In this document: positions 5,275-18,738 of the stretch, piece after piece
Layout: every line of letters starts with the position of its first letter
Position numbering within the stretch: position 1 is the first letter of the stretch
Notes under the pieces: generated by a model
The model's input: only the letters and a program-made list of their open reading frames with translations
The model's database searches: none
Told to the model about the DNA's origin: nothing
Made by a program: the position numbers and the translations under genes
From: a virus
Reading direction: 5' to 3' (one strand)
Virus record (IMG/VR): IMGVR_UViG_3300030107_002730
Location: 1-48,308 of that record
DNA length: 48,308 bases

Positions 5275-5576
5275 AATAACTTGATGTTATGCTTGTAATG
5301 TATAGTGTAAAATGTGTTATGGTGTCACATTTTAAACAATACAATATATTTAATATCATAGCTTTTAATTGTAACAATATCATGGCTGTCCTAGTGGATT
5401 TAATCACAGCGTTTAAACAGTATATATATCATTTTATAGTATAACCTACATATAACAAGTCATTACATAGCATTATATTAAATAACGCCCATATTTACGT
5501 TTTAACGCGATATTATTGTTATGCGTGTATTAGTATCTAGAATCAATAATCTTAGCAAATCACTTTTTCAAGTCAT

Positions 5577-5663
5577 GTAAGTTATTGTTAATTAAGGACT
5601 TACGATACTTTGTTAATATTTATTAATTATTTACTTGCACATATTAATTATATGTAATAATTT
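5577..5663 (+). promoter_or_regulatory. Operator/promoter-like module, copy A
   Basis: A 25-bp dyad (TAAGTTATTG at 5578-5587, TAAGGACTTA at 5593-5602, 5-base centre) is followed by TTGCAC (5635-5640) and an AT-rich stretch ATATTAATTATATGTAATAA. The same architecture recurs at 8675-8750. TTGCAC fits a -35 box, but no TATAAT-like box sits at the usual 16-18 bases, so the exact promoter is uncertain. It lies about 320 bases upstream of the first early gene. Confidence 0.5.
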
Positions 5664-5782
5664 ATTATATCATTAAATAATACATTGTTATTTATGATTA
5701 TGGATTTAGTAAGTTACCTCTTAATAATACAATAGAATTTATTAAGGGCTTGAACTGAAAGTTTTTTGAAATCGCTGAGAGG

Positions 5783-5841
5783 TTGTAACGAAGTCGGAGT
5801 TTCTACAAGAGCCAACAAAAAACGAATCTAACTCGGTTGGT
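5783..5841 (+). ncRNA. Leader hairpins upstream of the tRNA-like element
   Basis: Hairpin one pairs TTGTA (5783-5787) with TACAA (5804-5808) and GAA (5790-5792) with TTC (5801-5803), around an 8-base loop. Hairpin two pairs GCCAAC (5811-5816) with GTTGGT (5836-5841). Together with the element at 5874-5946 they suggest a structured early leader RNA. No known family is recognised. Confidence 0.35.
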
Positions 5842-5873
5842 GTCTATAGGACTATAAACCTTGCAAACTCTAT

Positions 5874-5946
5874 AAACTTGCTCTAAATTGGTAGATAATT
5901 AAAAGGATAGTTTTTAATTAAAAAGGTTCGAATCCTTTCAAGTTTA
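5874..5946 (+). tRNA. tRNA-like element, abnormal anticodon arm
   Basis: 73 bases, exactly tRNA length. The acceptor stem is perfect (AAACTTG 5874-5880 with CAAGTTT 5939-5945, then A5946). The T arm is canonical: AAAGG, loop TTCGAAT, CCTTT (5922-5938). The D arm is TCTA-AATTGG-TAGA (5882-5895). The middle hairpin has 8 bp rather than 5 (AATTAAAA with TTTTAATT) and its loop, GGATAGT, lacks the invariant U33. CCA is not encoded (ACAA follows). It may be a decayed tRNA, or a tRNA mimic serving as an RNA-processing signal or regulator of the early transcript. An amino acid identity cannot be assigned. Confidence 0.5.
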
Positions 5947-5979
5947 CAAGTAATAATAATAATAAAAATGAGGTATAAT

Positions 5980-6576
5980 ATGAAAAAGATAACACGTGAG
6001 CAGTGGCTAGAAAAAGCACTAAAAGAACTAAATAAGAGAGTGTTTAAACCTATTGACAAAGCACTAGACTTAGATAAGATTAAAATATCTTGTGGCTTTC
6101 CACCTAATCATAGAGCAGGCTCTAAAATGAAAACAGTTGGCGTATGTTTCCCTGATACAACCAACGGATTTAATGAGATATTTATAAATCCATGTGTATC
6201 AAAATCAGATGATGCGTTATCTATTGTAGCACATGAAGGCGTACACGCTAGATTGAATTGTGAGCATGGACACGGAAAGCCATTTAGAGATATAGCAATC
6301 GCTATCGGTTTAGAAGGTAAAATGACATCAACACACGCAGGCGAAAATCTAAAGGCTATAATAAAAGAAATTACTAAAAAGATTGGCGAGTATCCACACG
6401 AGGAACTAAAAGTCAATCATAAAAAGCAAGGTACTAGGATGCTGAAAGTACATTGTCCGACTTGCTTAATGACTTCAGGAGACGATTATATCACCTATAC
6501 AACCAATAAGCAGATACAAAAAGGGACTACATTTTGCCCCGAAGGTCATAAAATGAAAGTAGCAGTAAAAAAATAA
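5980..6576 (+). CDS. SprT-like zinc metalloprotease
   Basis: 198 residues from ATG 5980. The in-frame ATG at 5968 is rejected because it overlaps the GAGG ribosome site. The HExxH motif is HEGVH (85-89), with the third ligand likely in HGKPF (H98). A C-terminal zinc ribbon uses C159, C162, C186 and H190. This is the SprT/SPRTN layout; eukaryotic SPRTN digests DNA-protein cross-links, while bacterial and phage SprT proteins are poorly understood. As the first early gene it may strip or cleave host DNA-bound proteins, or assist replication; that role is inference. The stop is followed by a strong hairpin at 6585-6625. Confidence 0.85.
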   Translation: MKKITREQWLEKALKELNKRVFKPIDKALDLDKIKISCGFPPNHRAGSKMKTVGVCFPDTTNGFNEIFINPCVSKSDDALSIVAHEGVHARLNCEHGHGKPFRDIAIAIGLEGKMTSTHAGENLKAIIKEITKKIGEYPHEELKVNHKKQGTRMLKVHCPTCLMTSGDDYITYTTNKQIQKGTTFCPEGHKMKVAVKK

Positions 6577-6584
6577 AATAAAAC

Positions 6585-6625
6585 AATCTGTTTAAACGCT
6601 CTAGTACAGGGCGTTTAAATGGATT
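6585..6625 (+). terminator. 15-bp hairpin built from two GTTTAAAC-type sites
   Basis: AATCTGTTTAAACGC (6585-6599) pairs with GCGTTTAAATGGATT (6611-6625), including two G-U pairs, around an 11-base loop. It begins 8 bases after the SprT stop. No U-tract follows, so intrinsic termination is doubtful. It may stabilise or process the mRNA, or act as a double operator. Confidence 0.45.
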
Positions 6626-6654
6626 AAATAATAATAATAAAAACGAGGTATAAA

Positions 6655-6822
6655 ATGAGAAAACAAAGTTTTCTAATACTTTGTAGTGTTGGAGGTGTTA
6701 GCTCAGAAAAAGCACTAAAAAACACTAAAATTGTTGAAGCACTAAAAAACAGAAACGATAAAAAAGTAAGAAAATTACTTAAAAAGATGTCTTCAAGGAA
6801 AGATAATTGGATAGTAGTATAA
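6655..6822 (+). CDS. Small basic protein, unknown
   Basis: 55 residues (MRKQSFLILCSVGGVSSEKA...), lysine-rich toward the C-terminus (KNRNDKKVRKLLKKMSSRKD). Start ATG 6655 follows GAGGTATAAA, a leader nearly identical to those before several neighbours. The short hydrophobic N-terminus is not long enough for a sure membrane segment. No family is recognised. Confidence 0.6.
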   Translation: MRKQSFLILCSVGGVSSEKALKNTKIVEALKNRNDKKVRKLLKKMSSRKDNWIVV

Positions 6823-6852
6823 ACTAATAATAATAAAAATGAGGTAATAAAA

Positions 6853-7293
6853 ATGGAATATAAAAAAGCAGAAATAAGAGAGTATATACAAGAGCGCTTA
6901 AACGAGGCGTACGAGTATGACAAGGACTATTTAAATCAAGATACATACGATATTCATAATGATTTATTTAATACAGATTATTATATAATAGGATATTATA
7001 AAGCAGAAAAATGGCTTGGTAATAAAACTTTTGATATAATTAGATATATAAAAGATTATGAAAATGAAATTTTTGGAGAGGTTCATACAGACCTTTCAAG
7101 CTCTGAAAGTGTCGTAAATATGTATGTTTATATAATTGGCGAAGAACTATTGGAAGAAGAAATAAAAGAGTTTAAACGAGATGTTTTATTAAATCTGATG
7201 GATAAGTATCAAGGACATAAAATAACGGATACTAAAATAGTAAATGATTTATGGAAAGATATTATCGGATTTGATAGATTTGATAGCGTTTAA
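6853..7293 (+). CDS. Acidic early protein, unknown
   Basis: 146 residues, acidic and rich in Tyr, Asp and Glu, with blocks such as DYYIIGYYKAEKWLG and VVNMYVYIIGEELLEEE. It looks like a compact globular protein with no membrane segment. The stop codon lies inside a GTTTAAAC site (GATAGCGTTTAAAC), giving the C-terminus DSV. Its leader is GAGGTAATAAAA before ATG. No family can be named. Confidence 0.75.
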   Translation: MEYKKAEIREYIQERLNEAYEYDKDYLNQDTYDIHNDLFNTDYYIIGYYKAEKWLGNKTFDIIRYIKDYENEIFGEVHTDLSSSESVVNMYVYIIGEELLEEEIKEFKRDVLLNLMDKYQGHKITDTKIVNDLWKDIIGFDRFDSV

Positions 7294-7313
7294 ACATACT
7301 AATAATAAATAAA
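7285..7313 (+). repeat. 29-bp boundary repeat, copy 1
   Basis: The 29 bases beginning AGCGTTTAAACATAC and continuing into the AATAAT-rich spacer are identical to 7571-7599. This copy overlaps the stop of the 146-residue gene; the second follows the stop of the 79-residue gene. The pair suggests duplication of a gene-boundary unit. Confidence 0.85.
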
Positions 7314-7329
7314 TAAAAAAGGAGAAATT

Positions 7330-7569
7330 ATGCAGTTTAGCGATAGAGATTTACGGTGGGATGAAATAACTCACACACAGGACAAAGATACATTAAGAGA
7401 ATTAGCTTTTCACTATGAGGAAGAAGCAAGAAGTCTTTTAATAGAACTAGCGAGAAGACGAAGAGATGTGGAGCGTCATAGAGAAGAAGGTAGGCAAGAG
7501 GGTAGGCAAGAAATATTAGCACTACCTTTGTATAAATTGTTATGGAAGTGGATTAAAAAATACATATAA
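7330..7569 (+). CDS. Charged coiled-coil-like small protein
   Basis: 79 residues. The central part is strongly charged and helical (ELARRRRDVERHREEGRQEG, about 42-61), with a direct repeat EGRQEGRQE, and it ends with LLWKWIKKYI. It may form a coiled coil or bind nucleic acid. Ribosome site AAAAAGGAG lies just upstream of ATG 7330. No family recognised. Confidence 0.65.
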   Translation: MQFSDRDLRWDEITHTQDKDTLRELAFHYEEEARSLLIELARRRRDVERHREEGRQEGRQEILALPLYKLLWKWIKKYI

Positions 7570-7570
7570 G

Positions 7571-7599
7571 AGCGTTTAAACATACTAATAATAAATAAA
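7571..7599 (+). repeat. 29-bp boundary repeat, copy 2
   Basis: Identical to 7285-7313. It follows the stop of the 79-residue gene and leads into a promoter-like TTGACT sequence at 7608. Confidence 0.85.
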
Positions 7600-7607
7600 A
7601 ATAATGC

Positions 7608-7637
7608 TTGACTTTAATAAATAATGTAATGTAATTT
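7608..7637 (+). promoter_or_regulatory. Possible internal early promoter
   Basis: TTGACT (7608-7613) is followed 18 bases later by TAATTT, with ATAATGTAATG between. It sits in one of the longer early gaps, before the 123-residue gene. The -10 match is poor, so this is tentative. A related stretch with TTGAGA and ATAATGT lies at 11229-11250 before the ribbon-helix-helix gene. Confidence 0.3.
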
Positions 7638-7672
7638 AAAATAATAACAATAACAATAAAATGAGGTATAAA

Positions 7673-8044
7673 ATGACAACAGAAAAAACACTAGGAACGA
7701 TACAAGAACCTATAAATGTAACAGATGAACATATTGATTCTATTTTGTGTGGTTCTTTTGAAGGTAGTTGTAATTATTGGATAGATAAAATTGGAGTGGT
7801 TAATAATGATTTTAAAGGGGCTGAATTTGCATCTGAAGTTGTAGCAAAAGGTGGCTCATTATTTATATATGAAAATGGCGAAAAGCACCTATTAACATTA
7901 GAAAAAATGATAAAAGGTTGTCAATTATATGTAAATGGAAACAAAAACACAAAAGGGCGCAAATTTGATATATATAAATGGGACGCTATAGACCATGATA
8001 TGATATTACAATATGCAATATTTGGCGAGGTCATCTACGGATAA
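7673..8044 (+). CDS. Conserved-type phage early protein, unknown
   Basis: 123 residues from ATG 7673. The in-frame ATG 7661 overlaps the GAGG ribosome site and is rejected. The pattern ILCGSFEGSCNYWIDKIG, then GAEFASEVVAKGGSLFIY and LLTLEKMIKGCQLY, resembles a hypothetical protein I associate with many unrelated phages. No enzymatic motif is visible. It probably acts early against the host or in DNA metabolism, but that is inference. Confidence 0.78.
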   Translation: MTTEKTLGTIQEPINVTDEHIDSILCGSFEGSCNYWIDKIGVVNNDFKGAEFASEVVAKGGSLFIYENGEKHLLTLEKMIKGCQLYVNGNKNTKGRKFDIYKWDAIDHDMILQYAIFGEVIYG

Positions 8045-8078
8045 ATAATAACTAAGAGCGTTTAAACGGAGGTATAAA

Positions 8079-8174
8079 ATGTTTGGATTAATATTTTGGT
8101 GTAAAGTAGCATTAATAATTTTAGCTGGTTGTATGGCTTGTTTAGGCGTATGGTCAACTACATGGAAACAATAA
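8079..8174 (+). CDS. 31-residue membrane microprotein
   Basis: MFGLIFWCKVALIILAGC and the following residues form one hydrophobic helix, ending WSTTWKQ. The start has a strong site, GGAGGTATAAAATG, immediately after a GTTTAAAC copy (8060-8067). It is one of four tiny single-helix proteins in the early block. Function unknown; inner-membrane insertion is inferred. Confidence 0.6.
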   Translation: MFGLIFWCKVALIILAGCMACLGVWSTTWKQ

Positions 8175-8201
8175 CAATAACAATAACAAAAGGAGTTAAA
8201 A

Positions 8202-8522
8202 ATGGAAAACAGAGAAGAAGCATACATAGGAATAGAGTTAGAAACACACATATACGGACAGGACTTAGGCTCGGCTGGAATGGAAGATGTCCTTAACCAA
8301 GGTATTGATATAAGTGCAAGAGAACTATATAAATTCATCTATGAGAATGGATGGTATTGTAGCGATGAAAAGCTAAAAATGATGTTAGATGACTATGAGA
8401 ATAGCGATAATATGTTGTATCCATTAACTTGTCATTATGAGAAAGAAACATCATATGCAGATTGGCTAGAATATGAAAAGTGGAGAGATGAAGAAAGAGA
8501 AAAAGAAAGCAAGAGCGTTTAA
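8202..8522 (+). CDS. Acidic early protein, unknown
   Basis: 106 residues, acidic, with aromatic blocks (YKFIYENGWYCSDEK, SYADWLEYEKWRDEE). The ribosome site is AAAGGAG. The stop lies inside GTTTAAAC, giving the tail KESKSV, which is identical to the tail of the 54-residue product at 8798-8962. About 27 bases of shared DNA there imply a copied gene end rather than protein homology. Confidence 0.72.
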   Translation: MENREEAYIGIELETHIYGQDLGSAGMEDVLNQGIDISARELYKFIYENGWYCSDEKLKMMLDDYENSDNMLYPLTCHYEKETSYADWLEYEKWRDEEREKESKSV

Positions 8523-8549
8523 ACACACTAGAAAAACAAGGAGAATAAA

Positions 8550-8678
8550 ATGTATGTACTAAAAACTAAAGGCAAAATAACTTACTATACTAGACGCAGA
8601 GATTTAGTGCGTGATTGCATAGTTGAGTTAATTAACAAGATGAACCCGTTTAAACGGACTAATAGCAATGTATCGTAA
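8550..8678 (+). CDS. 42-residue basic protein, unknown
   Basis: 42 residues (MYVLKTKGKITYYTRRRDLV...), basic, with a GTTTAAAC copy inside its codons (NPFKRTN). Start ATG follows AAGGAGAATAAA. The stop codon overlaps the dyad of control module B (8675-8750), so the gene ends where the next unit's regulatory region begins. Confidence 0.55.
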   Translation: MYVLKTKGKITYYTRRRDLVRDCIVELINKMNPFKRTNSNVS

Positions 8679-8750
8679 GTTGTTGTTTTTTAACGACTTA
8701 GCGATAAAAGAAAATAAAGTTCTTGCATATATTAGATAATGTATAGTAAC
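8675..8750 (+). promoter_or_regulatory. Operator/promoter-like module, copy B
   Basis: The dyad TAAGTTGTTG (8676-8685) / TAACGACTTA (8691-8700) has a 5-base centre. It is followed by TTGCAT (8723-8728), ATATTAGATAATG and TATAGT (8742-8747). It matches module A at 5577-5663 in arms, centre length and order. In RNA the dyad would form a 10-bp hairpin with a U5 loop. Spacing of TTGCAT to TATAGT is only 13 bases, so the core promoter is not certain. Confidence 0.5.
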
Positions 8751-8797
8751 TTAGTGTAGTACAGAATAATAATAAATAATAATAAATAGGAGATGTA

Positions 8798-8962
8798 ATG
8801 AAATTAATTGAAAGAGTTTTGGAAGAAATTAACAGCGACTTATTTAGTGGTGATACAGAGGCTGTAGAGGAGTTGCTTTCATTTGTTCCTAAACAAAACT
8901 TGATACAGTATTTACCAGAAGAAGAATGGAGAAAATATGAAAAAGAAAGCAAGAGCGTTTAA
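8798..8962 (+). CDS. 54-residue acidic protein, unknown
   Basis: 54 residues (MKLIERVLEEINSDLFSGDT...), helical and acidic. It is the first gene after control module B, with ribosome site AGGAGATGTA. It ends KESKSV with its stop inside GTTTAAAC, like the 106-residue product. Confidence 0.62.
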   Translation: MKLIERVLEEINSDLFSGDTEAVEELLSFVPKQNLIQYLPEEEWRKYEKESKSV

Positions 8963-8992
8963 ACAACTTAATAATAATAAATAGGAGATGTA

Positions 8993-9382
8993 ATGAAATA
9001 CAAAACACATAACGATAAAGAGATATGTACAGATGGAACTTGGTTACAAGGTCATGTTTATTGCTCATACGAAACATTAGTGAGCTTATTCGGAGAGCCT
9101 AGTGAACGCTATGACGATTATAAATGTGATGCACATTGGGACGTTGAGCTTGAAGATGGCGAGGTTGCGACCATCTATAATTGGAAAAATGGGATTAACT
9201 ATTGTGGAGTTAAAGATGGTATCCCAACAGAAAAAATAACTGAGTGGAACATAGGTGGGAATACGCATAAAGTAGCATTTGCTATTAACCATCTTACAAA
9301 CCATTCTTTAATGATGCAAGTACAAGGATTAAAGCATAACCTAGAACTTGCAGAGCAAGAAACTCACAGATTACTTAAATAA
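8993..9382 (+). CDS. Conserved-type phage early protein, unknown
   Basis: 129 residues. The core is LVSLFGEPSE, CDAHWDVEL, GEVATIYNWKNGINYCG and TEWNIGGNTHKV, a pattern I recognise from hypothetical proteins in diverse phages. No catalytic motif is clear. Start ATG 8993 follows AGGAGATGTA, the same leader as the preceding gene. Confidence 0.75.
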   Translation: MKYKTHNDKEICTDGTWLQGHVYCSYETLVSLFGEPSERYDDYKCDAHWDVELEDGEVATIYNWKNGINYCGVKDGIPTEKITEWNIGGNTHKVAFAINHLTNHSLMMQVQGLKHNLELAEQETHRLLK

Positions 9383-9405
9383 TAATAATAATACGGAGGT
9401 GTATA

Positions 9406-9609
9406 ATGAAAGTAACAAGTGTACGATACTTTGAAACTAGGAGAGGACTAGGTTACGAGTGCAAAACAAATACTGATAAAGTTATATGGAATGATGGTAT
9501 GGGTGGTGGTACATACATAGATGGATTGCACGAGTTTAATGGATTGCGAGGTGGAGAGCTAGAAGACTACCTAGAATCCTTAATCGATAACTACGAGGAG
9601 GTTGCATAA
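9406..9609 (+). CDS. Small early protein, unknown
   Basis: 67 residues, with an N-terminal beta-like half (VTSVRYFETRRGLGYEC), a glycine run (GMGGGTY) and an acidic helical tail. Ribosome site CGGAGG. Its stop overlaps the next start (TAATG), so translation is probably coupled. Confidence 0.68.
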   Translation: MKVTSVRYFETRRGLGYECKTNTDKVIWNDGMGGGTYIDGLHEFNGLRGGELEDYLESLIDNYEEVA

Positions 9610-9776
9610 TGAAAATAACAGCAGAAATGGTAGAATATTGGTACGGAAGTGACATCATATTGCCTAAAGATGTAATAAGGGATATAGTAGATATAGCTAA
9701 CAAGGATTATGATGTTAAAACACTAAAAATTGATATACAAATGTCATGGAGGACACACAATGATAGCAATAACTAA
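9609..9776 (+). CDS. 55-residue protein, unknown
   Basis: 55 residues (MKITAEMVEYWYGSDIILPK...). It overlaps the previous stop by one base and the AbrB-like gene by 17 bases. The ribosome site GAGGAGG lies inside the upstream gene. Close packing with a DNA-binding protein suggests a partner role, but it has no recognisable antitoxin or toxin motif. Confidence 0.6.
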   Translation: MKITAEMVEYWYGSDIILPKDVIRDIVDIANKDYDVKTLKIDIQMSWRTHNDSNN

Positions 9777-9942
9777 ACTGAAGCTAGATTCAAAAGGGAG
9801 AATAACATTCCCTAAGAGTTTTAGAGAGGCGAACAACATTAAAGCTAAATCATATGTTCATGTGTATCCTGTATTATCAGATACAATAGTCGGCTCACTA
9901 AAAAACACAATAAAAATAACATTTGAAACAGAGGAGGAGTAA
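9760..9942 (+). CDS. AbrB/SpoVT-type DNA-binding protein
   Basis: 60 residues. KLKLDSKGRITFPKSFREA (about 6-24) is the signature of the AbrB/MazE/SpoVT swapped-hairpin fold, which dimerises and binds DNA. Start ATG 9760 has GGAGG at the right distance; an upstream TTG (9730) is rejected. The protein may be a regulator of early genes and is one of two candidates for binding the GTTTAAAC sites or the 25-bp dyads. Confidence 0.82.
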   Translation: MIAITKLKLDSKGRITFPKSFREANNIKAKSYVHVYPVLSDTIVGSLKNTIKITFETEEE

Positions 9943-9943
9943 T

Positions 9944-10081
9944 ATGGGACGTTGGGACGAATTATTTGACATATTGCAAGTGCTAAATCCGTCTAATTCA
10001 GAATCACCTTTCGATTTAGATGGAGATGATGCCGAAGTACGATGGGACGATATTTGCTACTTTATGGATGGATTAAAATAA
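9944..10081 (+). CDS. 45-residue acidic protein, unknown
   Basis: 45 residues, acidic, with an imperfect internal repeat (GRWDELFDIL near the start, VRWDDICYF near the end). The ribosome site GAGGAGGAG overlaps the AbrB-like gene's end, and ATG follows two bases after that stop. Not recognised. Confidence 0.58.
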   Translation: MGRWDELFDILQVLNPSNSESPFDLDGDDAEVRWDDICYFMDGLK

Positions 10082-10111
10082 TAACTAAGAACGTTTAAAC
10101 GGAGGTGTAAA

Positions 10112-10291
10112 ATGAAGAAAAATAAAGGATTCCAAATAAAAGTACAATGGGATAGATTAGGAGAAGATGTTGAAATTTTTTCCTTTGCAACTGAAGAAGA
10201 AGAATCAGCATTTGTACTTGGTATTGAAAAAGGTAATGGGTGGGATGCTCCTACTTGGGAATATTTAAATAATAATAAGGAGGAGGAATGA
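10112..10291 (+). CDS. 59-residue acidic protein, unknown
   Basis: 59 residues with a beta-like N-terminus (GFQIKVQWDRLGEDVEIFSF) and an acidic remainder. ATG follows GTTTAAACGGAGGTGTAAA, the palindrome-plus-ribosome-site leader also seen before 8079. It overlaps the next gene by four bases (ATGA). Confidence 0.62.
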   Translation: MKKNKGFQIKVQWDRLGEDVEIFSFATEEEESAFVLGIEKGNGWDAPTWEYLNNNKEEE

Positions 10292-10509
10292 ACGACATAA
10301 CATACAAAGGCAAGTCGTTAATAAAAGCGACAGAAAAAAGAGACAGAGCAAAAGCGTTTAAACAGCTTCATATAGATGATATGTATGGAATGTTAAAAAG
10401 GCTAGAGAAACGAGTGGAAGAACTAGAATATGAACGATGGAAAAAGAATCTACAGGAAGACCATGTTAGATACGACTTCATAGGAGATAACAATGAAGAT
10501 GATTCCTAG
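10288..10509 (+). CDS. Charged helical small protein
   Basis: 73 residues. LKRLEKRVEELEYERWKKNL (about 36-55) is likely a coiled coil. A GTTTAAAC copy lies in its codons (AKAFKQL). It has GGAGGAGG as ribosome site inside the upstream gene, with a four-base overlap at both ends' context. Function unknown. Confidence 0.62.
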   Translation: MNDITYKGKSLIKATEKRDRAKAFKQLHIDDMYGMLKRLEKRVEELEYERWKKNLQEDHVRYDFIGDNNEDDS

Positions 10510-10585: not shown

Positions 10586-10598
10586 AGGAGGTTTCATA

Positions 10599-10931
10599 AT
10601 GGCTAAGTACATACAAAAGAGAAAACGAGAAGTATTAAGAAAACATATGAAAGAATTAAAGATGAGTAATTATTGTCAGAAGTGTGGATTAGAAGACCCT
10701 AAATATCCAGTTATATTTGATTTTGACCATCAAAAGCGTGAAGATAAAAAAAGTGATGTGTCAAGCATGTTAGCACAAGCAAGGTCTTGGAAGATGATAT
10801 TTGAAGAAGTTTGTAAATGTCAAATGTTATGCTCTAATTGTCACAGAAAGAAGACTTGGGACGAAAGAAATGATATTGGAGAATGGAACGCTATTTTTGG
10901 TAGAGAATATTTTGAAGGAGGTAAACAATGA
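10599..10931 (+). CDS. HNH-type zinc protein (putative endonuclease)
   Basis: 110 residues. Two zinc knuckles (C26-x2-C29 and C78-x2-C81-H82, sequence MLCSNCHRKKTW) flank a DH dipeptide (FDFDHQ, 41-46), the layout of small Cys4 HNH endonucleases. It is free-standing, not inside an intron. It may nick host or phage DNA, or act in recombination. The canonical second His/Asn order is not fully clear, so the nuclease call is probable rather than sure. Ribosome site AAAGGAGG. Confidence 0.72.
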   Translation: MAKYIQKRKREVLRKHMKELKMSNYCQKCGLEDPKYPVIFDFDHQKREDKKSDVSSMLAQARSWKMIFEEVCKCQMLCSNCHRKKTWDERNDIGEWNAIFGREYFEGGKQ

Positions 10932-11164
10932 ATGTTGTAAATAAAATATTAGATATAGCAAAAGAAGGGCATGATAAGATAGCATTAAAGCAATATATTG
11001 TTAAATTAGAGCGCAAAATTGTCGATTTAACGAGCGAAAATGAAAAACTAAGGATAAGGGTAGGGTTATTAGAAAATCCTGAATTTGAGCCATATCCTGA
11101 TGGTTTGGATATAGAACAAAAGCGTTTAAACGACTTGGAGGATAGTAATGATACAGGTATTTGA
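10928..11164 (+). CDS. Coiled-coil small protein
   Basis: 78 residues. IVKLERKIVDLTSENEKLRI (about 25-44) has heptad leucines typical of a coiled coil, followed by an acidic tail. It overlaps the HNH gene by four bases (ATGA). A GTTTAAAC copy encodes part of QKRLNDLE. Function unknown. Confidence 0.65.
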   Translation: MNVVNKILDIAKEGHDKIALKQYIVKLERKIVDLTSENEKLRIRVGLLENPEFEPYPDGLDIEQKRLNDLEDSNDTGI

Positions 11165-11228: not shown

Positions 11229-11305
11229 TTGAGAATATGTAAAATAATGTTAGTTTTATTTATTTAATGTTCTATAAATTATTTAATAACAAAGGAGATA
11301 ATAAT

Positions 11306-11479: not shown

Positions 11480-11480
11480 T

Positions 11481-12314
11481 ATGAGAAACTCTGACCCAGC
11501 AGGTATCAATGAAATCTATGATTCGTTCATTCAAAAAAGAAATGATGCGAATACAGAGGAGAGATACGAAGGTAATGAGAATTGGTTTAATGCAAGTAGC
11601 ACAGGATTGTGTGTACGGAGGGTTTATTTTCAATCTGTTGAACAGGCAGAGAAAACTGACCTCCCAAATACAACTTCAAAGAGATTGATGAGATTAGGAA
11701 CGATTGTTCATAATGATATTCAAGAATCTTTGGTGCAGTATAATACTAATAGTAATAATACTAATAGTAATATACTAAAGAAGAAAAAGAAACAAGATAT
11801 ACTTGTAAAGAAAAAGAAAGTTAAATTTTTTGTAGAACAAGAAATCCAAATCAAAGAACTTAACGTAAGAGGATTTTATGATGCTTTAGCAGAGGTAAAG
11901 GTTGATGATAAGGTGTATTACTATCTTTATGATTTTAAGACTATGGCTTCATATCCTTGGAAGTTGAAGTTTGGACGTGATGCTAAGAAAGAACAGCTAT
12001 CACATCAAGAGCTTCAGTTAGGAACTTATGGATACGCTATACAGGAGAAGTATGGTAAGCTTAGTGGCATGTACTTGATGTATTACAACAAAGATACATC
12101 GGTCGTTAAGAGTATTACCGTTCCACTCACGATGGTAAGTAAAGCGTATGCATATTGGGTAAATGCAAAAAAAGAGATAGAGAGAGGGTTACCTGATTTT
12201 CGGATAGGAACTTCGCCTGCTAAGGAGTGGGCATGTAACTACTGTCCGTTTAAACAGCGTTGTAATCCTCCTAACTTCATAACAAAACAAAATAGGAGAA
12301 GCTATGCCCGTTAA
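11481..12314 (+). CDS. Cas4/RecB-type PD-(D/E)XK nuclease
   Basis: 277 residues if started at ATG 11481; ATG 11445 is an alternative. Four cysteines (C44 in TGLCVRRVYF; C252, C255 and C261 in CNYCPFKQRC) fit an iron-sulfur cluster of the Cas4/AddB kind. The active site is D134 (GFYDAL) with D151 and K153 (YLYDFKT), plus QLGTYGYA downstream. It is likely an exonuclease that makes single-stranded DNA for the annealing protein encoded next. Residues 86-115 are a low-complexity Asn/Thr/Ser/Lys insertion. The start overlaps the regulator's stop region closely, so translation is probably coupled. Confidence 0.83.
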   Translation: MRNSDPAGINEIYDSFIQKRNDANTEERYEGNENWFNASSTGLCVRRVYFQSVEQAEKTDLPNTTSKRLMRLGTIVHNDIQESLVQYNTNSNNTNSNILKKKKKQDILVKKKKVKFFVEQEIQIKELNVRGFYDALAEVKVDDKVYYYLYDFKTMASYPWKLKFGRDAKKEQLSHQELQLGTYGYAIQEKYGKLSGMYLMYYNKDTSVVKSITVPLTMVSKAYAYWVNAKKEIERGLPDFRIGTSPAKEWACNYCPFKQRCNPPNFITKQNRRSYAR

Positions 12315-13553: not shown

Positions 13554-13684
13554 TAAAAGTAGGAAAAACAAAGTCAAGAATGATACGAATAGCAAGAGGT
13601 GTATTTGGTATTAAGCCAAAGAGATTGTCGAGGATATTTAATATATCTCTTGCAACTGTGTATAGACACTTAGACAAAGATTAA
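13550..13684 (+). CDS. Small helix-turn-helix-like protein, TTG start
   Basis: 44 residues if started at TTG 13550, which overlaps the SSB stop (TTGA) and has GAGGAG nine bases upstream; ATG 13580 would give 34. KRLSRIFNISLATVYRHLDK at the C-terminus reads as a helix-turn-helix. It may be a small regulator. The stop codon is the first three bases of the structured element 13682-13827. Confidence 0.5.
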   Translation: MIKVGKTKSRMIRIARGVFGIKPKRLSRIFNISLATVYRHLDKD

Positions 13685-13827
13685 GAGTAGCAATATATCA
13701 TAGCAATAGCCAAGGAGCTTTTAACAGAGCTATTGAAACATACAAGAGACAATTAGCTGGCTGGAAGTTGCAGCTCAACGAGGGGATAATAAAGCCTTGA
13801 AAAAATAAAAACTCCAAGCTACTCTTA
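13682..13827 (+). ncRNA. Structured RNA element, 4-stem
   Basis: A perfect 10-bp outer stem (TAAGAGTAGC 13682-13691 with GCTACTCTTA 13818-13827) encloses 126 bases. Inside are CAATAGC/GCTATTG (13704-13710, 13729-13735), AGCTG/CAGCT (13755-13759, 13771-13775) and CGAGG/CCTTG (13779-13783, 13795-13799, one G-U pair). This gives a multibranch shape like a riboswitch or a discrete small RNA. The ribosome site of the next gene starts 16 bases after the outer stem. There is no open frame across it and no known family is recognised. Confidence 0.6.
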
Positions 13828-13851
13828 CTAACAAACAAAAAAAGGAGAAAA

Positions 13852-14244
13852 ATGCCTCTAAATACTGATTTATCTCACGGAAATTGGGATATTGACCTCG
13901 ACTTCGGGAAAGTTGGAGAACAAGCCTTAGTAGATTTATTAGAAAGTGATGGCTCTATTGAAGTAAAAACCGAAAGAGATATATGGAAGACAACAGGGAA
14001 TATAGCAATAGAAATACGATACTATGGAAACCCATCAGGTATTTCTACAACAGAAGCAAAAACGTGGATTCATCTATTGTCTTATGAAGGTAATATCGAA
14101 GGTGGTTTTATACTTAAAGTATCTGAGCTTAAAGAAAAGATACGTAGGCTGTTTAAACGGAATGAGGCAAAGACCGTAATGGGTGGTGATAACAATGCAT
14201 CTGAATTAGTATTGCTACCCATACGAGAAATGTTTTTCATTTAA
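13852..14244 (+). CDS. PD-(D/E)XK-like nuclease, copy 1
   Basis: 130 residues. LDFGKVGEQALVDLL, then IEVKTERDIWKTTGNIAIE and GISTTEAKTWIH form a nuclease-like core. E23, D33 and the E37-x-K39 pair fit a PD-(D/E)XK active site. It is paralogous to 18349-18738. It is preceded by the structured RNA 13682-13827 and an AAAGGAG ribosome site. It may be a resolving or restriction-like nuclease in recombination; the family call is from pattern only. A GTTTAAAC copy lies in its codons (RLFKRNE). Confidence 0.68.
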   Translation: MPLNTDLSHGNWDIDLDFGKVGEQALVDLLESDGSIEVKTERDIWKTTGNIAIEIRYYGNPSGISTTEAKTWIHLLSYEGNIEGGFILKVSELKEKIRRLFKRNEAKTVMGGDNNASELVLLPIREMFFI

Positions 14245-14260
14245 TTTAAGGGGGTAAAAA

Positions 14261-14347
14261 ATGTTAGGAATGGTGATTATATTAGGGTTATTATTAGCAC
14301 TACTGGTATGTGTGGTATACGCAGAAGATAATGATAACAACGAATGA
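14261..14347 (+). CDS. 28-residue membrane microprotein
   Basis: MLGMVIILGLLLALLVCVVY then AEDNDNNE: a leucine-rich helix with an acidic tail. A strong AGGGGG ribosome site precedes ATG. It overlaps the next gene, another membrane-type product. Confidence 0.58.
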   Translation: MLGMVIILGLLLALLVCVVYAEDNDNNE

Positions 14348-14645
14348 TATGCTAGCTTTATTTTTTATTGCTTTTGTTGTTATACCAATAACAGTAGAAA
14401 CACACAATTGCATGCACCCAAACCCAGAAGCTCAAGGGGCAGTATGTGATTGGAAATCAAAGACATGGCATAAGAAATTTGACTTAGAGACTTTAGAGTA
14501 TTACTATGTTTTAGAGGGAACAAGTGATACGGATAATTTCGTTGAGAGGCAGGTAAGGAAAAGGTATTGGAAGGAGAGAGATGAAAAAAACAACCTTGAC
14601 AAAGATGTACCCAAGAGAGAGTACATACAGAAAAGAGGGGAGTAA
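14331..14645 (+). CDS. Membrane-anchored or secreted small protein
   Basis: 104 residues from ATG 14331 (ATG 14310 also possible). An N-terminal hydrophobic stretch (MLALFFIAFVVIPITV) is followed by a soluble, charged domain with two cysteines (NCMHP, AVCDW). It could be an anchored or exported factor; superinfection exclusion is possible but unproven. Confidence 0.6.
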   Translation: MITTNDMLALFFIAFVVIPITVETHNCMHPNPEAQGAVCDWKSKTWHKKFDLETLEYYYVLEGTSDTDNFVERQVRKRYWKERDEKNNLDKDVPKREYIQKRGE

Positions 14646-14799
14646 AAGATTCCTTATTGACAAATATGGTAAATTGCAATACGGAGAGATAGTACAAAGA
14701 AGTGCTGAAGAAGTATCAAATAACAAGAAGTGTTGGTGGGTGTATAAGTATATTCTTAACTACAGGCCTATCAATTGGGCAAAAAGAAGAGATTATTAA
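14581..14799 (+). CDS. Small basic protein, unknown
   Basis: 72 residues, lysine- and tyrosine-rich (CWWVYKYILNYRPINWAKRR near the end). The start ATG 14581 overlaps the preceding gene by 65 bases and has AAGGAG very close; ATG 14605 may be used instead. Not recognised. Confidence 0.5.
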   Translation: MKKTTLTKMYPRESTYRKEGSKRFLIDKYGKLQYGEIVQRSAEEVSNNKKCWWVYKYILNYRPINWAKRRDY

Positions 14800-14811
14800 G
14801 CAAGGAGGTAG

Positions 14812-15048
14812 ATGGAAAAGAAAGATGTAAATAGAAGAATTAGGGGACTCATCAGGTCGATTGGCAATAACACCTCCATTTCATCCTCCCAACCATCATC
14901 TATGGGTCCCAAAAATATTAAGAATGTAGAGAAGAGATTAAAAGAGTATCAGATAAAAAAGTATGGAAAGTGTATCGCATGTGGCGAACCTATCCAACCA
15001 ACTAACTGTCACTTTCAATGTTCAAGTTGTGGATACGCTGAGAACTGA
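14812..15048 (+). CDS. Small zinc-ribbon protein
   Basis: 78 residues. The basic N-terminal part (RRIRGLIRSIG) is followed by a C-terminal ribbon CIACGEP ... CHFQCSSCGYAEN, with cysteines about 56, 59, 70 and 73. It likely binds nucleic acid. Ribosome site AAGGAGG is tightly spaced to ATG. Function unknown. Confidence 0.68.
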   Translation: MEKKDVNRRIRGLIRSIGNNTSISSSQPSSMGPKNIKNVEKRLKEYQIKKYGKCIACGEPIQPTNCHFQCSSCGYAEN

Positions 15049-15088
15049 CACGAAACACCAACCTATCAGGTAGATAAGGATAAATAAA

Positions 15089-15310
15089 ATGAAGTTTGTA
15101 GAAAAGTATGAATTTGACAAAAAGGACCCTGATAAGTGGGGCTATCAAAGAAAGACTATAACAAAAATAAAAACACATTTAGATAACATCCCTGGATTAA
15201 AGGAAAAAGATTTATGTCAGATGACATACCTTCTTGATGATATGGAGGAAGAAATAATACAATGTGCGATGAAAAATTATTTAAACAACAAGGAGAAAGT
15301 AAATGGGTAG
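15089..15310 (+). CDS. Small helical protein, unknown
   Basis: 73 residues (MKFVEKYEFDKKDPDKWGYQ...), acidic and helical toward the C-terminus. The ribosome site is weak (AAGGATAAATA). It overlaps the next gene by eight bases. Not recognised. Confidence 0.58.
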   Translation: MKFVEKYEFDKKDPDKWGYQRKTITKIKTHLDNIPGLKEKDLCQMTYLLDDMEEEIIQCAMKNYLNNKEKVNG

Positions 15311-15539
15311 AGCAATAGACATGGAAAAAGACATTGATACGCTAAAACGTCAAATGTCTGAAGTTAAAAGTAAAGTAGGCGAACTAAAGACTACACTAAG
15401 CGAGATATTAGATGCAGCTTCATCGAAGAAGAATGTAGATTTAGTAGAGGAAACAAAAAAGGAGACTAAGGTTGAAACAAAAAAGAAAAAAACCAACAAT
15501 GACTCAAGTGGAAAACGTAGTGGGAAATCTTCTGATTGA
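15303..15539 (+). CDS. Coiled-coil protein with Lys-rich tail
   Basis: 78 residues. IDTLKRQMSEVKSKVGELKT (about 11-30) is a coiled coil, followed by a disordered Lys/Glu/Thr/Ser tail. Ribosome site AAGGAGAAAG. The 3' end overlaps the next gene in another frame. Likely a scaffold or partner protein in the replication operon. Confidence 0.6.
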   Translation: MGRAIDMEKDIDTLKRQMSEVKSKVGELKTTLSEILDAASSKKNVDLVEETKKETKVETKKKKTNNDSSGKRSGKSSD

Positions 15540-15690
15540 TATGCGTAATGTTGTAGAGTCGCTACAAGTATTAGACGTAGCGTTCTCAAACTACGTAGAG
15601 ATGAAGAAAGAAACAGAAAAGTTAAGAGAGTACATAGAAAACAAAGCTAAGGAACTTAAAGATGAGAGAAATACAGACGGAGCTGGCTAG
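15472..15690 (+). CDS. Small helical protein, probable TTG start
   Basis: 72 residues from TTG 15472, which has GGAG seven bases upstream; ATG 15499 is the alternative (63 residues). MRNVVESLQVLDVAFSNYVE and MKKETEKLREYIENKAKEL form long amphipathic helices. It overlaps both neighbours. Function unknown. Confidence 0.55.
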   Translation: MKQKRKKPTMTQVENVVGNLLIDMRNVVESLQVLDVAFSNYVEMKKETEKLREYIENKAKELKDERNTDGAG

Positions 15691-16036
15691 GGTTCACATA
15701 ACAGCCGATGGTAAACGGTTTCTTAGCGAACAAGATGCTATTGAGCATCAAGAAAATAAGACTAGAGCAAATGAGGAAAATGCCATGAAAGTCTCAGAAA
15801 TGATAATGAGTGTGTTTAAACGCAATGGGTGGGGAGTATACCACATTACGAAACCAATACAATCATTAAAAGTACAAAACGATGCATCATTGTTTAAAGT
15901 TAATGATGTGTCAAATGAAGAGATAGAAGTAGCCTTTCAAGAATCTCTTACGGATACGGTATCAGATTTAAACGAAAGGATAGGAACATGTCAGACAGAT
16001 ACGCAGACAGATTCGCAACAGAAGGAGAACTATTAG
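15662..16036 (+). CDS. Early protein, unknown
   Basis: 124 residues. The N-terminal half contains HITADGKRFLSEQDAIEHQE, resembling short phage proteins that begin by reading a sequence position. The C-terminus is Thr/Gln-rich. A GTTTAAAC copy encodes SVFKRNG. It overlaps both neighbours (29 and 49 bases). Not recognised. Confidence 0.6.
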   Translation: MREIQTELARVHITADGKRFLSEQDAIEHQENKTRANEENAMKVSEMIMSVFKRNGWGVYHITKPIQSLKVQNDASLFKVNDVSNEEIEVAFQESLTDTVSDLNERIGTCQTDTQTDSQQKENY

Positions 16037-16224
16037 ACCACATCATAGACTTCTATGAAGGACAGATAGATAAGTTCTTACGAAGAATGGGTGGAACAAC
16101 AGAGCATGGCACAACCATAACACCAGCTATGCTTAGTGTAACGGTCAAAAGGTATACTCATCTGTTAGAGAAACGAGACGAAGAAGCTAAAGTATTACTT
16201 GAAGCAGAAGGCTTTTTAGTCTAA
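15988..16224 (+). CDS. Small helical protein, unknown
   Basis: 78 residues. LLDHIIDFYEGQIDKFLRRM and VKRYTHLLEKRDEEAKVLLE are long helices. Start ATG 15988 follows AAAGGATAGGAAC. The 49-base overlap with the upstream gene is in another frame. It may be a helicase partner by position, with no sequence proof. Confidence 0.6.
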   Translation: MSDRYADRFATEGELLDHIIDFYEGQIDKFLRRMGGTTEHGTTITPAMLSVTVKRYTHLLEKRDEEAKVLLEAEGFLV

Positions 16225-16250
16225 AAATAAACAACAAATAATAAAACTTG

Positions 16251-16262
16251 TCCCGAAAGGGA
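16251..16262 (+). promoter_or_regulatory. GNRA hairpin before the helicase operon
   Basis: TCCC-GAAA-GGGA forms a 4-bp stem with a GAAA tetraloop just ahead of the purine-rich ribosome site AAGGGGAGGTG. It could modulate translation of the next two genes. The stem is short, so weight is low. Confidence 0.3.
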
Positions 16263-16282
16263 GAAGGGGAGGTGTCTAAAAA

Positions 16283-16576
16283 ATGGACCAAATAAAAAAT
16301 GCATTTATGGATATAATTGCAGAAGTAGATAGTGAAATACTTATAGCTGATGGGTTTGATGATGCTATAATAGGATATGTTGAACGATTAGGAGAGAGTG
16401 GGTATCAGACCTATGCGCTATATGACAAGGAAAAGGTAATCAGTATGCTTCAAGATGATATGACAAGAGAAGAGGCAGTTGAATACTTTGAATATAATAT
16501 ATTAGGTGCATACATGGGTAAATACACTCCAGCCTTTGCAACGGTATTAAGTGTGGAGGAGGACAAATGTACTTAG
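16283..16576 (+). CDS. Acidic protein upstream of helicase, unknown
   Basis: 97 residues, strongly acidic (DIIAEVDSEILIADGFDDAI, then VISMLQDDMTREEAVEYFEY). No family is recognised. It overlaps the helicase start by ten bases and is probably translated with it. A role as helicase partner or DNA mimic is only a guess. Confidence 0.68.
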   Translation: MDQIKNAFMDIIAEVDSEILIADGFDDAIIGYVERLGESGYQTYALYDKEKVISMLQDDMTREEAVEYFEYNILGAYMGKYTPAFATVLSVEEDKCT

Positions 16577-17907
16577 ATGGCCCAACGGATATTGAGTTAG
16601 AACAAACCGTATTGGGTACCATTATTGAGTACCCAGACACATACGATGAAGCAGCACCCTACCTAGCAGAGCCAGCAGTCCTATATGATTCTCAGTCAAG
16701 AGGAACGTGGAAGTTATTAACTGAGATGAGACATAAGAACGAGCCAATAGATTTAACGTCTGTATGTGCTTTCCTTTCGGTTGACGACACTATGGCTGGG
16801 ATAACTAAATCATATATAGCTGAAATATCATCTCAAGCGAGTGTTTCTGAGAATATCGTACCTTATGCAAAGAAATTATATCATAAATTCTTATTAAGGA
16901 AGATAGTCAAGAATGCAGAGAAGATACTAGAAACAGCAACATCAAACAGCCCTAATGCTTTCGAGGCTATTATAGATGCGCATAGCACTCTTGGAAGGCT
17001 TATAGATGTATCTCCAGGCGAAGAGTTTAGTATTGAGAATCAGATGATTGATGCTATAAATATTATTACGAGCAAAGAAGATAGGCTGATAAAGACAGGA
17101 TACCATCATATAGATAAGTTTGCTGGTGGTTTGACGAGAGGAGAGCTCACAGTTGTAGGTGGTAGGCCAGGCCATGGTAAATCTACAATGCTTCTTAATA
17201 TGCTATCACGTGTGATACATAGTGGTAAGAAGGTAGTATTGTTCAATAGAGAGCTTACGAACTCAGAGGTCTTAAAGAAGATAATAGCGCTCGAATCTGG
17301 CAAGCTATCTTATGGGTTGATACGAAAAGGTATATATGACAAGGGTTCACTTAAGGAACTTGAAAACGTGAAAGAAACTATCACTAAGCTCTATAGTGAA
17401 GACAAATTCAGGATGTTTGATTCTATACAGGACTTTTCAAGAGCCGCAACCGAAATAAAGAAATTCAAGCCTGATATTGTATTTGATGATTATATACAAC
17501 TTATACATATTACAGGTAAAGAAGAACAACGAAGATTACAGCTTGAGAAGTTAGTACATCAATATAAATGGATAGCAAAAGAGAACAATTGTGCAGTTGT
17601 TCTAGCATCCCAACTAAACCGTGCGATTGAGACTCGAACTCATCAACGCCCACAACTATCAGACCTAGCAGAGAGTGGAGCTATGGAACAAGCAGCTGAG
17701 AATGTGTTCTTTGTGTTTTATAAATACAAAGTATCAGGCAATCCAGCAGAGAAGAATGAAATATCACTCGTTGCATCTAAAGTGCGATACGGAGAGTCAG
17801 GAGAATCTCAACTATGGTATGATGGAGACAAGGCAAAGATATATGATGGTGAGGACGAGTTTATAGACGCACAGAAAGTAGAGTTAGTAGATGACCTCCC
17901 ATTTTAG
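16567..17907 (+). CDS. dnaB: DnaB-type replicative helicase
   Basis: 446 residues. The N-terminal DnaB domain (about 8-110) starts IELEQTVLGTIIEYPDTYDE. The RecA-fold motor has Walker A GGRPGHGKST (198-207), FNRE (E229), Walker B DIVFDDYIQLI (303-313), SQLNRAIE (348-355) and SDLAESGAMEQ (365-375). It should unwind DNA at the phage fork; no phage primase or polymerase was found, so host partners are implied. The last residues, VDDLPF, copy an SSB C-terminal tip. ATG has GGAGGAGG upstream. A one-position overlap region with the RuvC gene suggests coupling. Confidence 0.92.
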   Translation: MYLDGPTDIELEQTVLGTIIEYPDTYDEAAPYLAEPAVLYDSQSRGTWKLLTEMRHKNEPIDLTSVCAFLSVDDTMAGITKSYIAEISSQASVSENIVPYAKKLYHKFLLRKIVKNAEKILETATSNSPNAFEAIIDAHSTLGRLIDVSPGEEFSIENQMIDAINIITSKEDRLIKTGYHHIDKFAGGLTRGELTVVGGRPGHGKSTMLLNMLSRVIHSGKKVVLFNRELTNSEVLKKIIALESGKLSYGLIRKGIYDKGSLKELENVKETITKLYSEDKFRMFDSIQDFSRAATEIKKFKPDIVFDDYIQLIHITGKEEQRRLQLEKLVHQYKWIAKENNCAVVLASQLNRAIETRTHQRPQLSDLAESGAMEQAAENVFFVFYKYKVSGNPAEKNEISLVASKVRYGESGESQLWYDGDKAKIYDGEDEFIDAQKVELVDDLPF

Positions 17908-18358
17908 ATATATAGGAATAGACCCAGGTAAATCTGGTGGAATAACAGTCGTAGATAAAGACTTTATAAAGACACTAAAGTGTCCTGATAATACGATTGA
18001 TATGGCGACATTGTTTGAGATAATGCTAAAAGAAAAGGGAGACTACAAGCCTGGTAAGGTTATAGTAGGCATAGAGAAGGTATGGTCATTCCCTAGCGAT
18101 GGACGTAGCACAGCATTTACGTTTGGAGTGAATTATGGACAGTGGCAGGGTATTATTGCCTCGCATGAGATTGAGCCTATATTTGTTACTCCCAAAGAAT
18201 GGCAGTCATACTTCAATGTCCCTAAAAAGCTTAAAAAGGTACAGCGTAAGAATTGGATTAAAGATAAGGCCAAAGAGCTATATCCTGGACTTAAAGTAAC
18301 ACTTGCAACATCAGACGCAATCCTCATAGCTAAATACCTACAACAGACATGTTCATAG
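17891..18358 (+). CDS. RuvC-type Holliday junction resolvase
   Basis: 155 residues, RNase H fold. Acidic residues fit the active site: D11 in IGIDPGKSGG, E62 in VGIEKV, and D142 in ATSDAILIA. PKEWQSYF (101-108) is typical of phage RuvC-like enzymes. It should cut four-way junctions before packaging. It overlaps the helicase by 17 bases and the following nuclease-like gene by ten. Confidence 0.87.
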   Translation: MTSHFRYIGIDPGKSGGITVVDKDFIKTLKCPDNTIDMATLFEIMLKEKGDYKPGKVIVGIEKVWSFPSDGRSTAFTFGVNYGQWQGIIASHEIEPIFVTPKEWQSYFNVPKKLKKVQRKNWIKDKAKELYPGLKVTLATSDAILIAKYLQQTCS

Positions 18359-18738
18359 ACAATTTATGCAAGACATTCGACCTTGATGTAGATTTTGATT
18401 GGATAGGCGAGAATGCAGTAAAGGAGCTGTTTAAACGTGATGGTAAGGTAGAAGTAAGGACTGAGAATGATACATGGAAAGAGGAAGAGTGTATTAAGAT
18501 AGAACTTCGGTACAATGGGAGTCCTGCTGGATTAGCTTACACTGAGGCAAAGACGTGGATACATGTATTAATGTTAGATGGGATGGTTGTTGGAGGTTAC
18601 ATATTTCCTGTCGACAAATTAAAAGAGGCTATAAAGAAGCTTCATAAAGAGGAAAAAGCAACGATGGTTTTAGGCGGTAAGAATAATGCCTATCAGCTGA
18701 TTAAGGTCCCACTCTCAGAGTTGTGGAGAGTATTTTAA
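18349..18738 (+). CDS. PD-(D/E)XK-like protein, copy 2 with ExR
   Basis: 129 residues, clearly paralogous to 13852-14244: DVDFDWIGENAV, then VEVRTENDTWK, TEAKTWIHVL and GGKNNAYQL. The catalytic Lys of the ExK pair in copy 1 is Arg here (E35-V-R37), so activity may be lost or changed. It is the last early gene and its stop overlaps the stop of the convergent late block. A GTTTAAAC copy encodes ELFKRDG. Confidence 0.68.
   Translation: MFIDNLCKTFDLDVDFDWIGENAVKELFKRDGKVEVRTENDTWKEEECIKIELRYNGSPAGLAYTEAKTWIHVLMLDGMVVGGYIFPVDKLKEAIKKLHKEEKATMVLGGKNNAYQLIKVPLSELWRVF

What the first reader, a model, noticed from the sequence alone, without database searches (positions are those of the whole stretch)
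5411..18436. GTTTAAAC palindrome array confined to the early block
Seventeen perfect copies lie between 5.4 and 18.4 kb and only two in the other 35 kb. By base composition I estimate roughly 0.5 expected in the early block. The extended form AAGAGCGTTTAAAC recurs at gene ends and leaders. Copies occur in three contexts: overlapping a stop codon, before GGAGG, and inside codons as Phe-Lys. This is too regular to come from one protein motif. It resembles the start-associated repeats of cluster K mycobacteriophages or the stoperators of L5-like phages, but with a different sequence. Candidate binders are encoded nearby (AbrB-type 9760-9942, ribbon-helix-helix 11306-11479). It could repress, insulate or mark early genes.
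Basis: partly seen in the sequence, partly recalled or inferred. Interest (0 to 1): 0.72.

Follow-up and report, generated by a model that had tools for sequence, protein, structure and literature searches.

The report
Phage protease and its DNA sites
A short DNA word, GTTTAAAC (or its sister GTTTACAC), is sprinkled over the genomes of many unrelated bacterial viruses and some plasmids that carry one particular protease gene, including next to and inside that gene; this points to an undescribed system in which the protease (or a close partner) recognises its own element's DNA.

Summary
In detail: 19 perfect GTTTAAAC copies, 17 of them in 5.4-18.4 kb, against about 1.2 expected. It is not a peculiarity of this phage. 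The sites go with one gene, the SprT-like (Spartan-type) zinc metallopeptidase at 5980-6576, first gene of the early block. Array-bearing phages found by the motif share this protein and no other. Conversely, 54 of 79 viral loci picked only by this protein have significant arrays, against 0 of 163 control loci (Fisher P 7e-35). In high-GC actinophages with the gene, the sister word GTTTACAC is the most enriched of all 8-mers (Streptomyces phage Crosby 41, expected 1.7). Sites cluster just upstream of and inside the protease gene, also in bacterial genomes and on Sphingobium plasmids. Sites are under purifying selection (21/23 kept where 45% is expected). Best reading: the SprT-like protein recognises GTTTAMAC (M = A/C), regulates itself, and docks along its element's DNA. 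What it does there, cleaving DNA-bound proteins or silencing transcription, is inferred. I found no earlier report of this pairing.

The parts
5980..6576 (+). SprT-like zinc metallopeptidase with C-terminal zinc ribbon (198 aa; phrog_6361), first gene of the early block; the only protein family common to array-bearing phages
6232..6246 (+). HExxH active-site motif (H85 E86 G V H89); the third metal ligand H98 is at 6271-6273
   Evidence: invariant in A1; HExxH in 85 of 87 non-redundant relatives
6421..6447 (+). conserved basic motif KKQGTRMLK before the zinc ribbon (C159, C186); candidate DNA-reading part
   Evidence: R, K and C invariant or over 94% conserved; role inferred
5411..5418 (.). 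GTTTAAAC in the leader upstream of the SprT gene
   Evidence: -35-like hexamer overlaps it in a consensus scan (weak)
6042..6049 (.). GTTTAAAC inside the SprT gene (Phe-Lys); recurrent position in relatives
6590..6597 (.). GTTTAAAC just after the SprT stop codon; recurrent position in relatives
7170..7177 (.). GTTTAAAC, in-frame Phe-Lys
7288..7295 (.). GTTTAAAC overlapping a stop codon
7574..7581 (.). GTTTAAAC, intergenic
8060..8067 (.). GTTTAAAC, leader before GGAGG
8517..8524 (.). GTTTAAAC overlapping a stop codon
8648..8655 (.). GTTTAAAC
8957..8964 (.). GTTTAAAC overlapping a stop codon
10093..10100 (.). GTTTAAAC, leader before GGAGG
10356..10363 (.). GTTTAAAC, in-frame Phe-Lys
11124..11131 (.). 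GTTTAAAC, in-frame Leu-Asn
12248..12255 (.). GTTTAAAC inside the Cas4-like exonuclease gene (Phe-Lys)
14151..14158 (.). GTTTAAAC, in-frame Phe-Lys in a phrog_13596 gene
15814..15821 (.). GTTTAAAC, in-frame Phe-Lys
18429..18436 (.). GTTTAAAC, in-frame Phe-Lys in the second phrog_13596 gene
466..473 (.). GTTTAAAC outside the early block (portal gene, minus strand)
37425..37432 (.). GTTTAAAC outside the early block (structural region)

Best explanation
The GTTTAAAC array is the set of binding sites belonging to the SprT-like metallopeptidase encoded at 5980-6576, a family of mobile-element proteins built like human Spartan and E. coli SprT. SHOWN by sequence: gene and 8-mer array occur together across unrelated phages and on plasmids; the word shifts between GTTTAAAC and GTTTACAC with the protein's lineage; sites cluster upstream of and inside the protein's own gene; sites are kept by selection, in coding DNA too. 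INFERRED (about 0.8): the SprT-like protein, through its zinc ribbon and conserved basic KKQGTRMLK motif, recognises GTTTAMAC in double-stranded DNA, represses or tunes its own gene, and decorates the early region or the whole genome. INFERRED, less sure (about 0.45): the sites dock a DNA-activated protease on the element's own DNA, where it removes or cuts host proteins that bind or attack that DNA during establishment.
For: Motif-selected contigs share SprT and no other family so widely, and it is absent from the four array-less comparators. Protein-selected loci: 54/79 enriched at P<1e-3, against 0/163 control loci, none of which encode SprT. Motif covaries with the SprT tree: 44 A-type and 14 C-type proteins, only 4 switches. 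Own-gene sites: 40 of 130 SprT genes have GTTTAAAC at -150..0 (9.9 expected), mode -75..-25; GTTTACAC lies at -28..-79 in most high-GC relatives. Plasmids: pSWIT01 has 2 sites in 310 kb, both in the SprT module; pUT1 has 5 against 0.04, none in its transposon region. Purifying selection: 21/23 and 21/22 kept against 45% and 38%. Spacing is even over whole genomes in Crosby (CV 0.55) and Yang (CV 0.44), not promoter-centred. HExxH kept in 85/87. Best solved fold match is Spartan 6mdw, with its zinc domain (E 1.6e-3).
Against: No binding data. G011 (23 sites in 49 kb, completeness unknown) has no detectable SprT. Some SprT phages have no array: Dismas, Bordetella CN1, Pseudomonas Epa5. Proteolysis was not needed for antirestriction by the related-fold plasmid protein ArdC (PMC7213743). 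In several phages, this one included, sites are limited to the early region, which also fits gene control.
Confidence: 0.7

Rival explanations
1. Repressor-operator or roadblock array: the SprT-like protein (or a regulator it controls) silences transcription from many sites, as L5 repressor does at stoperators; the protease part serves to switch the silencing off.
For: Sites lie near gene starts and stops: SD-site-ATG 37/458 against 16.9 expected. Own-gene sites lie at -75..-25. Early-region confinement here and in Venkman. IrrE/ImmA-type metallopeptidases inactivate repressors (general knowledge; IrrE-DdrO also noted in PMC7213743).
Against: Most sites are intragenic in most genomes. GTTTACAC stands in both orientations to genes (10/10 in Yang). 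Even genome-wide spacing in Crosby and Yang.
Confidence: 0.35
2. Another protein (host-encoded, or phage-encoded and too divergent to detect) binds GTTTAMAC, and SprT is only its partner or antagonist.
For: No direct binding evidence for SprT; G011 has sites without SprT.
Against: No other protein family is shared. Hosts span alpha-, beta- and gammaproteobacteria and actinobacteria. Motif type tracks the SprT lineage. Sites sit at the SprT gene even where it is the only such place.
Confidence: 0.15
3. Modification, restriction or DNA-uptake word: the array marks DNA for a methylase, nuclease or uptake system.
For: A methylase gene adjoins SprT in Arthrobacter phage Yang; dispersed even spacing.
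Against: No methylase or nuclease family is shared by array genomes. The word is enriched, not avoided. The non-palindromic GTTTACAC form and the flank preference fit protein binding better.
Confidence: 0.04
4. Composition, codon usage or a repeated protein motif (chance).
For: AT-rich region; many sites read Phe-Lys.
Against: 1.16 expected. GC 0.6-0.7 genomes too. 0/119 arrays for the control palindrome GATTAATC. Purifying selection.
Confidence: 0.005

Closest known systems
SPRTN/Spartan and SprT DNA-dependent metalloproteases (DNA-protein crosslink repair)
   Same: HExxH plus third His metallopeptidase fold followed by a zinc-binding domain; best PDB match 6mdw/6mdx; Pfam SprT-like in 12 of 14 members
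   Different: To my knowledge known members are not sequence-specific and have no associated genomic site array; the phage family is short and mobile-element borne
ArdC antirestriction protein of plasmid R388 (PMC7213743)
   Same: Mobile-element DNA-binding protein with a Spartan-like metalloprotease domain
   Different: ArdC binds ssDNA non-specifically with a separate N-terminal domain; the paper reports that ArdC uses a Glu where Spartan has a third His (the present family keeps a His); no site array is described
Stoperators of L5-like mycobacteriophages
   Same: Tens of copies of a short site dispersed in a phage genome
   Different: 13-bp asymmetric sequence read by a phage repressor in one host group; absent here; here sites are palindromic or in mixed orientation, often intragenic, and linked to a metallopeptidase in many phage and plasmid types
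Start-associated sequences (SAS) of cluster K mycobacteriophages (PMC3203893)
   Same: Repeated short sequence, mostly in non-structural genes, near start codons
   Different: SAS is GGGATAGGAGCCC, asymmetric, virtually all within a few bp upstream of starts and mostly in one orientation; none here

Membership tests
SprT-like / Spartan metallopeptidases | HExxH with downstream His ligand | tested here: met
   H85, E86, H89, H98 invariant in A1; HExxH 85/87
SprT-like / Spartan metallopeptidases | Sequence or fold similarity to SprT/SPRTN | tested here: met
   Pfam PF10263 in 12/14 members, best 2.9e-9 (the window protein itself scores 20 bits, below the 25.6 cut-off); Foldseek 6mdw probability 1.00, E 1.6e-3, with a low TM-score of 0.37
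SprT-like / Spartan metallopeptidases | C-terminal zinc-binding domain | tested here: met
   C159 and C186 invariant in A1, CPxCGY...CP pattern; metal binding itself not testable
SprT-like / Spartan metallopeptidases | DNA-dependent proteolysis | not testable with these tools
   needs biochemistry
L5 stoperators | GGTGGMTGTCAAG consensus | tested here: not met
   0 exact matches on either strand
L5 stoperators | One orientation relative to transcription | tested here: not met
   GTTTAAAC is palindromic; the GTTTACAC form is 10 same/10 opposite in Yang and 7/5 in SuMoo (26/9 in Crosby; ORF-based, rough)
Cluster K SAS | GGGATAGGAGCCC placed 3-7 bp before start codons | tested here: not met
   0 matches; 12 of 19 window sites lie inside ORFs
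ArdC | N-terminal ssDNA-binding domain plus C-terminal metalloprotease | tested here: not met
   198 aa, metallopeptidase followed by zinc ribbon, no room for a separate N-terminal domain

The most novel reading that the evidence does not exclude
Phages and plasmids carry a sequence-specific Spartan-family protease together with a dispersed array of its 8-bp recognition word (GTTTAMAC), so that a protease is docked at intervals along the element's own DNA and clears or cuts host proteins there: a self-labelled, DNA-tethered anti-host protease.
Probability: 0.4. Interest if true: 0.95.

Novelty: categorically new. Interest (0 to 1): 0.85.

Why it matters
The protein family matches 163 isolated-phage records (mostly annotated 'SprT-like protease') and 69 plasmid records, and I know of no established role for it. 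Linking it to a precise DNA word in its own genome gives a first handle on its function and predicts sequence-specific DNA recognition by a Spartan-type protease, which would be new. It is testable now in cultured systems: Arthrobacter phage Yang, Streptomyces phage Crosby, Microbacterium phage SuMoo, Methylophilales phage Venkman, Sphingobium plasmid pUT1. It also gives a sequence-only way to predict a DNA-binding specificity from a genome.

Tried and rejected
1) AbrB-type and RHH proteins as binders: no AbrB relatives in other array genomes, and RHH relatives occur only in array-less phages. 2) Sequence-near relatives of the window in INPHARED: none by megablast. 3) Relatives by exonuclease or Sak protein: none of those loci has an array or a SprT gene; three long ones, N023, N025 and N026, served as negative comparators. 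4) Base rate of arrays: control 14-mer AAGAGCGATTAATC gave 0 arrays of either word in 119 contigs. 5) A substitute palindrome in high-GC phages: none, but an unrestricted 8-mer search and upstream regions revealed GTTTACAC. 6) mRNA-level (translation) signal: unlikely, because GTTTACAC stands on both strands relative to genes. 7) Specificity residues: E70 (numbered from the upstream ATG at 5968) is E in most A-type and Q/N/H in most C-type proteins; suggestive only, confounded by ancestry. 8) Literature: nothing linking GTTTAAAC, GTTTACAC or GTGTAAAC with phages as a motif, or SprT with arrays (open-access library only). 9) A related-loci run with the wide alignment on genomes failed and was redone with A2. 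10) Promoter scan of the window leader: no more than weak consensus hits.
Full report
WHAT IS THERE. The window is an IMG/VR phage genome (G000), complete by its 77-bp terminal repeat. It has a rightward early block (5.4-18.7 kb: SprT-like gene, small genes, HNH, Cas4-like exonuclease, Sak annealing protein, DnaB helicase, RuvC-like resolvase) and leftward packaging and structural genes (TerL, portal, major head protein). GTTTAAAC occurs 19 times, 17 of them in the early block. Dinucleotide shuffles give 1.16, and a third-order Markov model gives 1.39. The flanks are symmetric as well (-5 A, -1 C/T). Sites overlap stop codons, lie in leaders, or lie in genes in either stop-free frame. Spacing grows with distance from the start of the block (rho 0.57, P 0.02).

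IT IS NOT PECULIAR TO THIS PHAGE. A scan of IMG/VR for the 14-mer AAGAGCGTTTAAAC returned 119 contigs. In 27 of them GTTTAAAC is strongly over-represented and the top palindrome, for example 19 in 6.7 kb and 15 in 12 kb at 46% GC. The same scan with a control palindrome gave 119 contigs with no array of either word. Whole records hold up to 40 copies.

THE SHARED GENE. Clustering the proteins of array-bearing records (22 of them plus the window) showed one family in 17 of 23, and none in three array-less relatives of the window: the SprT-like metallopeptidase. An eighteenth record, G014, was recognised later by profile (L314). With isolates added and profile searches, it remained the only family common to array genomes. 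The test was then reversed. 79 IMG/VR loci selected only for encoding this protein have significant GTTTAAAC or GTTTACAC enrichment in 54 cases (P<1e-3), against 0 of 119 control contigs and 0 of 44 loci selected by the Sak protein, none of which encode SprT (Fisher P 6.6e-35). Loci from related contigs are not fully independent. Among 87 proteins made non-redundant at 85% identity, which include motif-selected records, 58 lie in enriched loci.

NAMED PHAGES. Methylophilales phage Venkman has 34 copies (2.1 expected), nearly all in the early half. Dinoroseobacter phage R5C (61.5% GC) has 17 (0.55 expected). Enterobacter phage Arya has 7 and E. coli phage ep3 has 4, each with one copy 24-28 bp upstream of its SprT gene. 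High-GC actinophages with SprT have no GTTTAAAC, but their SprT upstream regions carry GTTTACAC. This word is the most enriched of all 8-mers in their genomes: Crosby 41 against 1.7, Yang 20 against 0.7, SuMoo 16 against 0.2. On the SprT tree the two motif types switch only 4 times, and motif labels cluster far beyond shuffles. Some genomes are enriched for both words (G015: 40 and 10).

THE SITES BELONG TO THE GENE. Of 130 SprT genes, 40 have GTTTAAAC within 150 bp upstream (9.9 expected from the local density), mostly at -75..-25. A recurrent in-gene site lies at +56..+80, and another at the stop codon. All 14 bacterial-genome loci with the gene contain GTTTAAAC although 0.03-0.8 are expected. 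In several the only copy in about 20 kb sits at the SprT gene. The family is also on Sphingomonadaceae plasmids, next to ParA and RHH partition genes. The 310-kb pSWIT01 has exactly two sites, one inside the SprT gene and one 3 kb from it; pUT1 has five (0.04 expected), none in its transposon region.

SELECTION. Between G002 and G006 (87% identical) 21 of 23 sites are intact, against 82 of 181 comparable 8-mers (P 5e-6); the reverse comparison gives 21 of 22 (P 2e-8). G010 against G004 (78% identical): 8 of 10 against 12 of 54.

MECHANISM. The predicted fold (AlphaFold2, mean pLDDT 85) is a metallopeptidase followed by a zinc ribbon; the best PDB match is Spartan. The active site is kept in 85 of 87 proteins, and a basic motif KKQGTRMLK with the ribbon cysteines is nearly invariant. 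That this protein reads GTTTAMAC is inferred from co-occurrence, motif covariation and own-gene sites. Two functions remain: a docked protease acting on proteins bound to the element's DNA, favoured by the retained active site, even genome-wide spacing in Crosby, Yang and R5C, intragenic sites and mixed orientation; or a transcriptional silencer, favoured by early-region confinement here and own-promoter sites. I lean to the first, at modest confidence; both include self-regulation.

NOT EXPLAINED. G011 has 23 sites and no SprT. Dismas, CN1 and Epa5 have SprT and no array. Why AT-rich phages keep sites mainly in the early region while Crosby, Yang and R5C spread them evenly is open.

LIMITS. 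All evidence is comparative; no binding was measured. Many loci are metagenomic fragments of unknown host. The tree is a quick search. The literature library is open-access only.

Noticed in passing
window 5874-5946 +: tRNA-like sequence in the leader before the SprT gene: Rfam tRNA 24.4 bits, below the gathering score of 29; ARAGORN finds none.
   Followed up: partly
window 13852-14244 and 18349-18738: Two genes of the same unknown family (phrog_13596), each containing a GTTTAAAC site.
   Followed up: no
window 6640-9000: TAATAATAATAAA-type runs recur between stop codon and Shine-Dalgarno in the early genes; AATAATAA is the commonest 8-mer of the window.
   Followed up: no
window 10599-10931: HNH endonuclease gene inside the early block.
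   Followed up: no
window 3-79 and last 77 bases: Exact 77-bp terminal repeat splitting the portal gene: circular or terminally redundant complete genome.
   Followed up: yes
L423-L426 (Pseudomonas phage Epa5): Different enriched 8-mer CCCTGGGC/GCCCAGGG, 57 copies against 9.7 expected, in a SprT phage without GTTTAMAC; Bordetella CN1 has TAGATAGA and AACCTAAG repeats.
   Followed up: no
L440/L418/L419 (Arya), L441-L443 (ep3): ACAA-N3-TTGT dyads, 13 and 11 copies against 0.4 and 0.7 expected: a likely repressor operator set.
   Followed up: no
L296-L298 (G011): 23 GTTTAAAC in 49 kb without a detectable SprT-like gene.
   Followed up: partly
L463-L466 (Sphingobium and Rhizorhabdus plasmids): SprT-like gene sits beside ParA and RHH partition genes, and in two of the four beside the replication gene, in the plasmid backbone.
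   Followed up: partly
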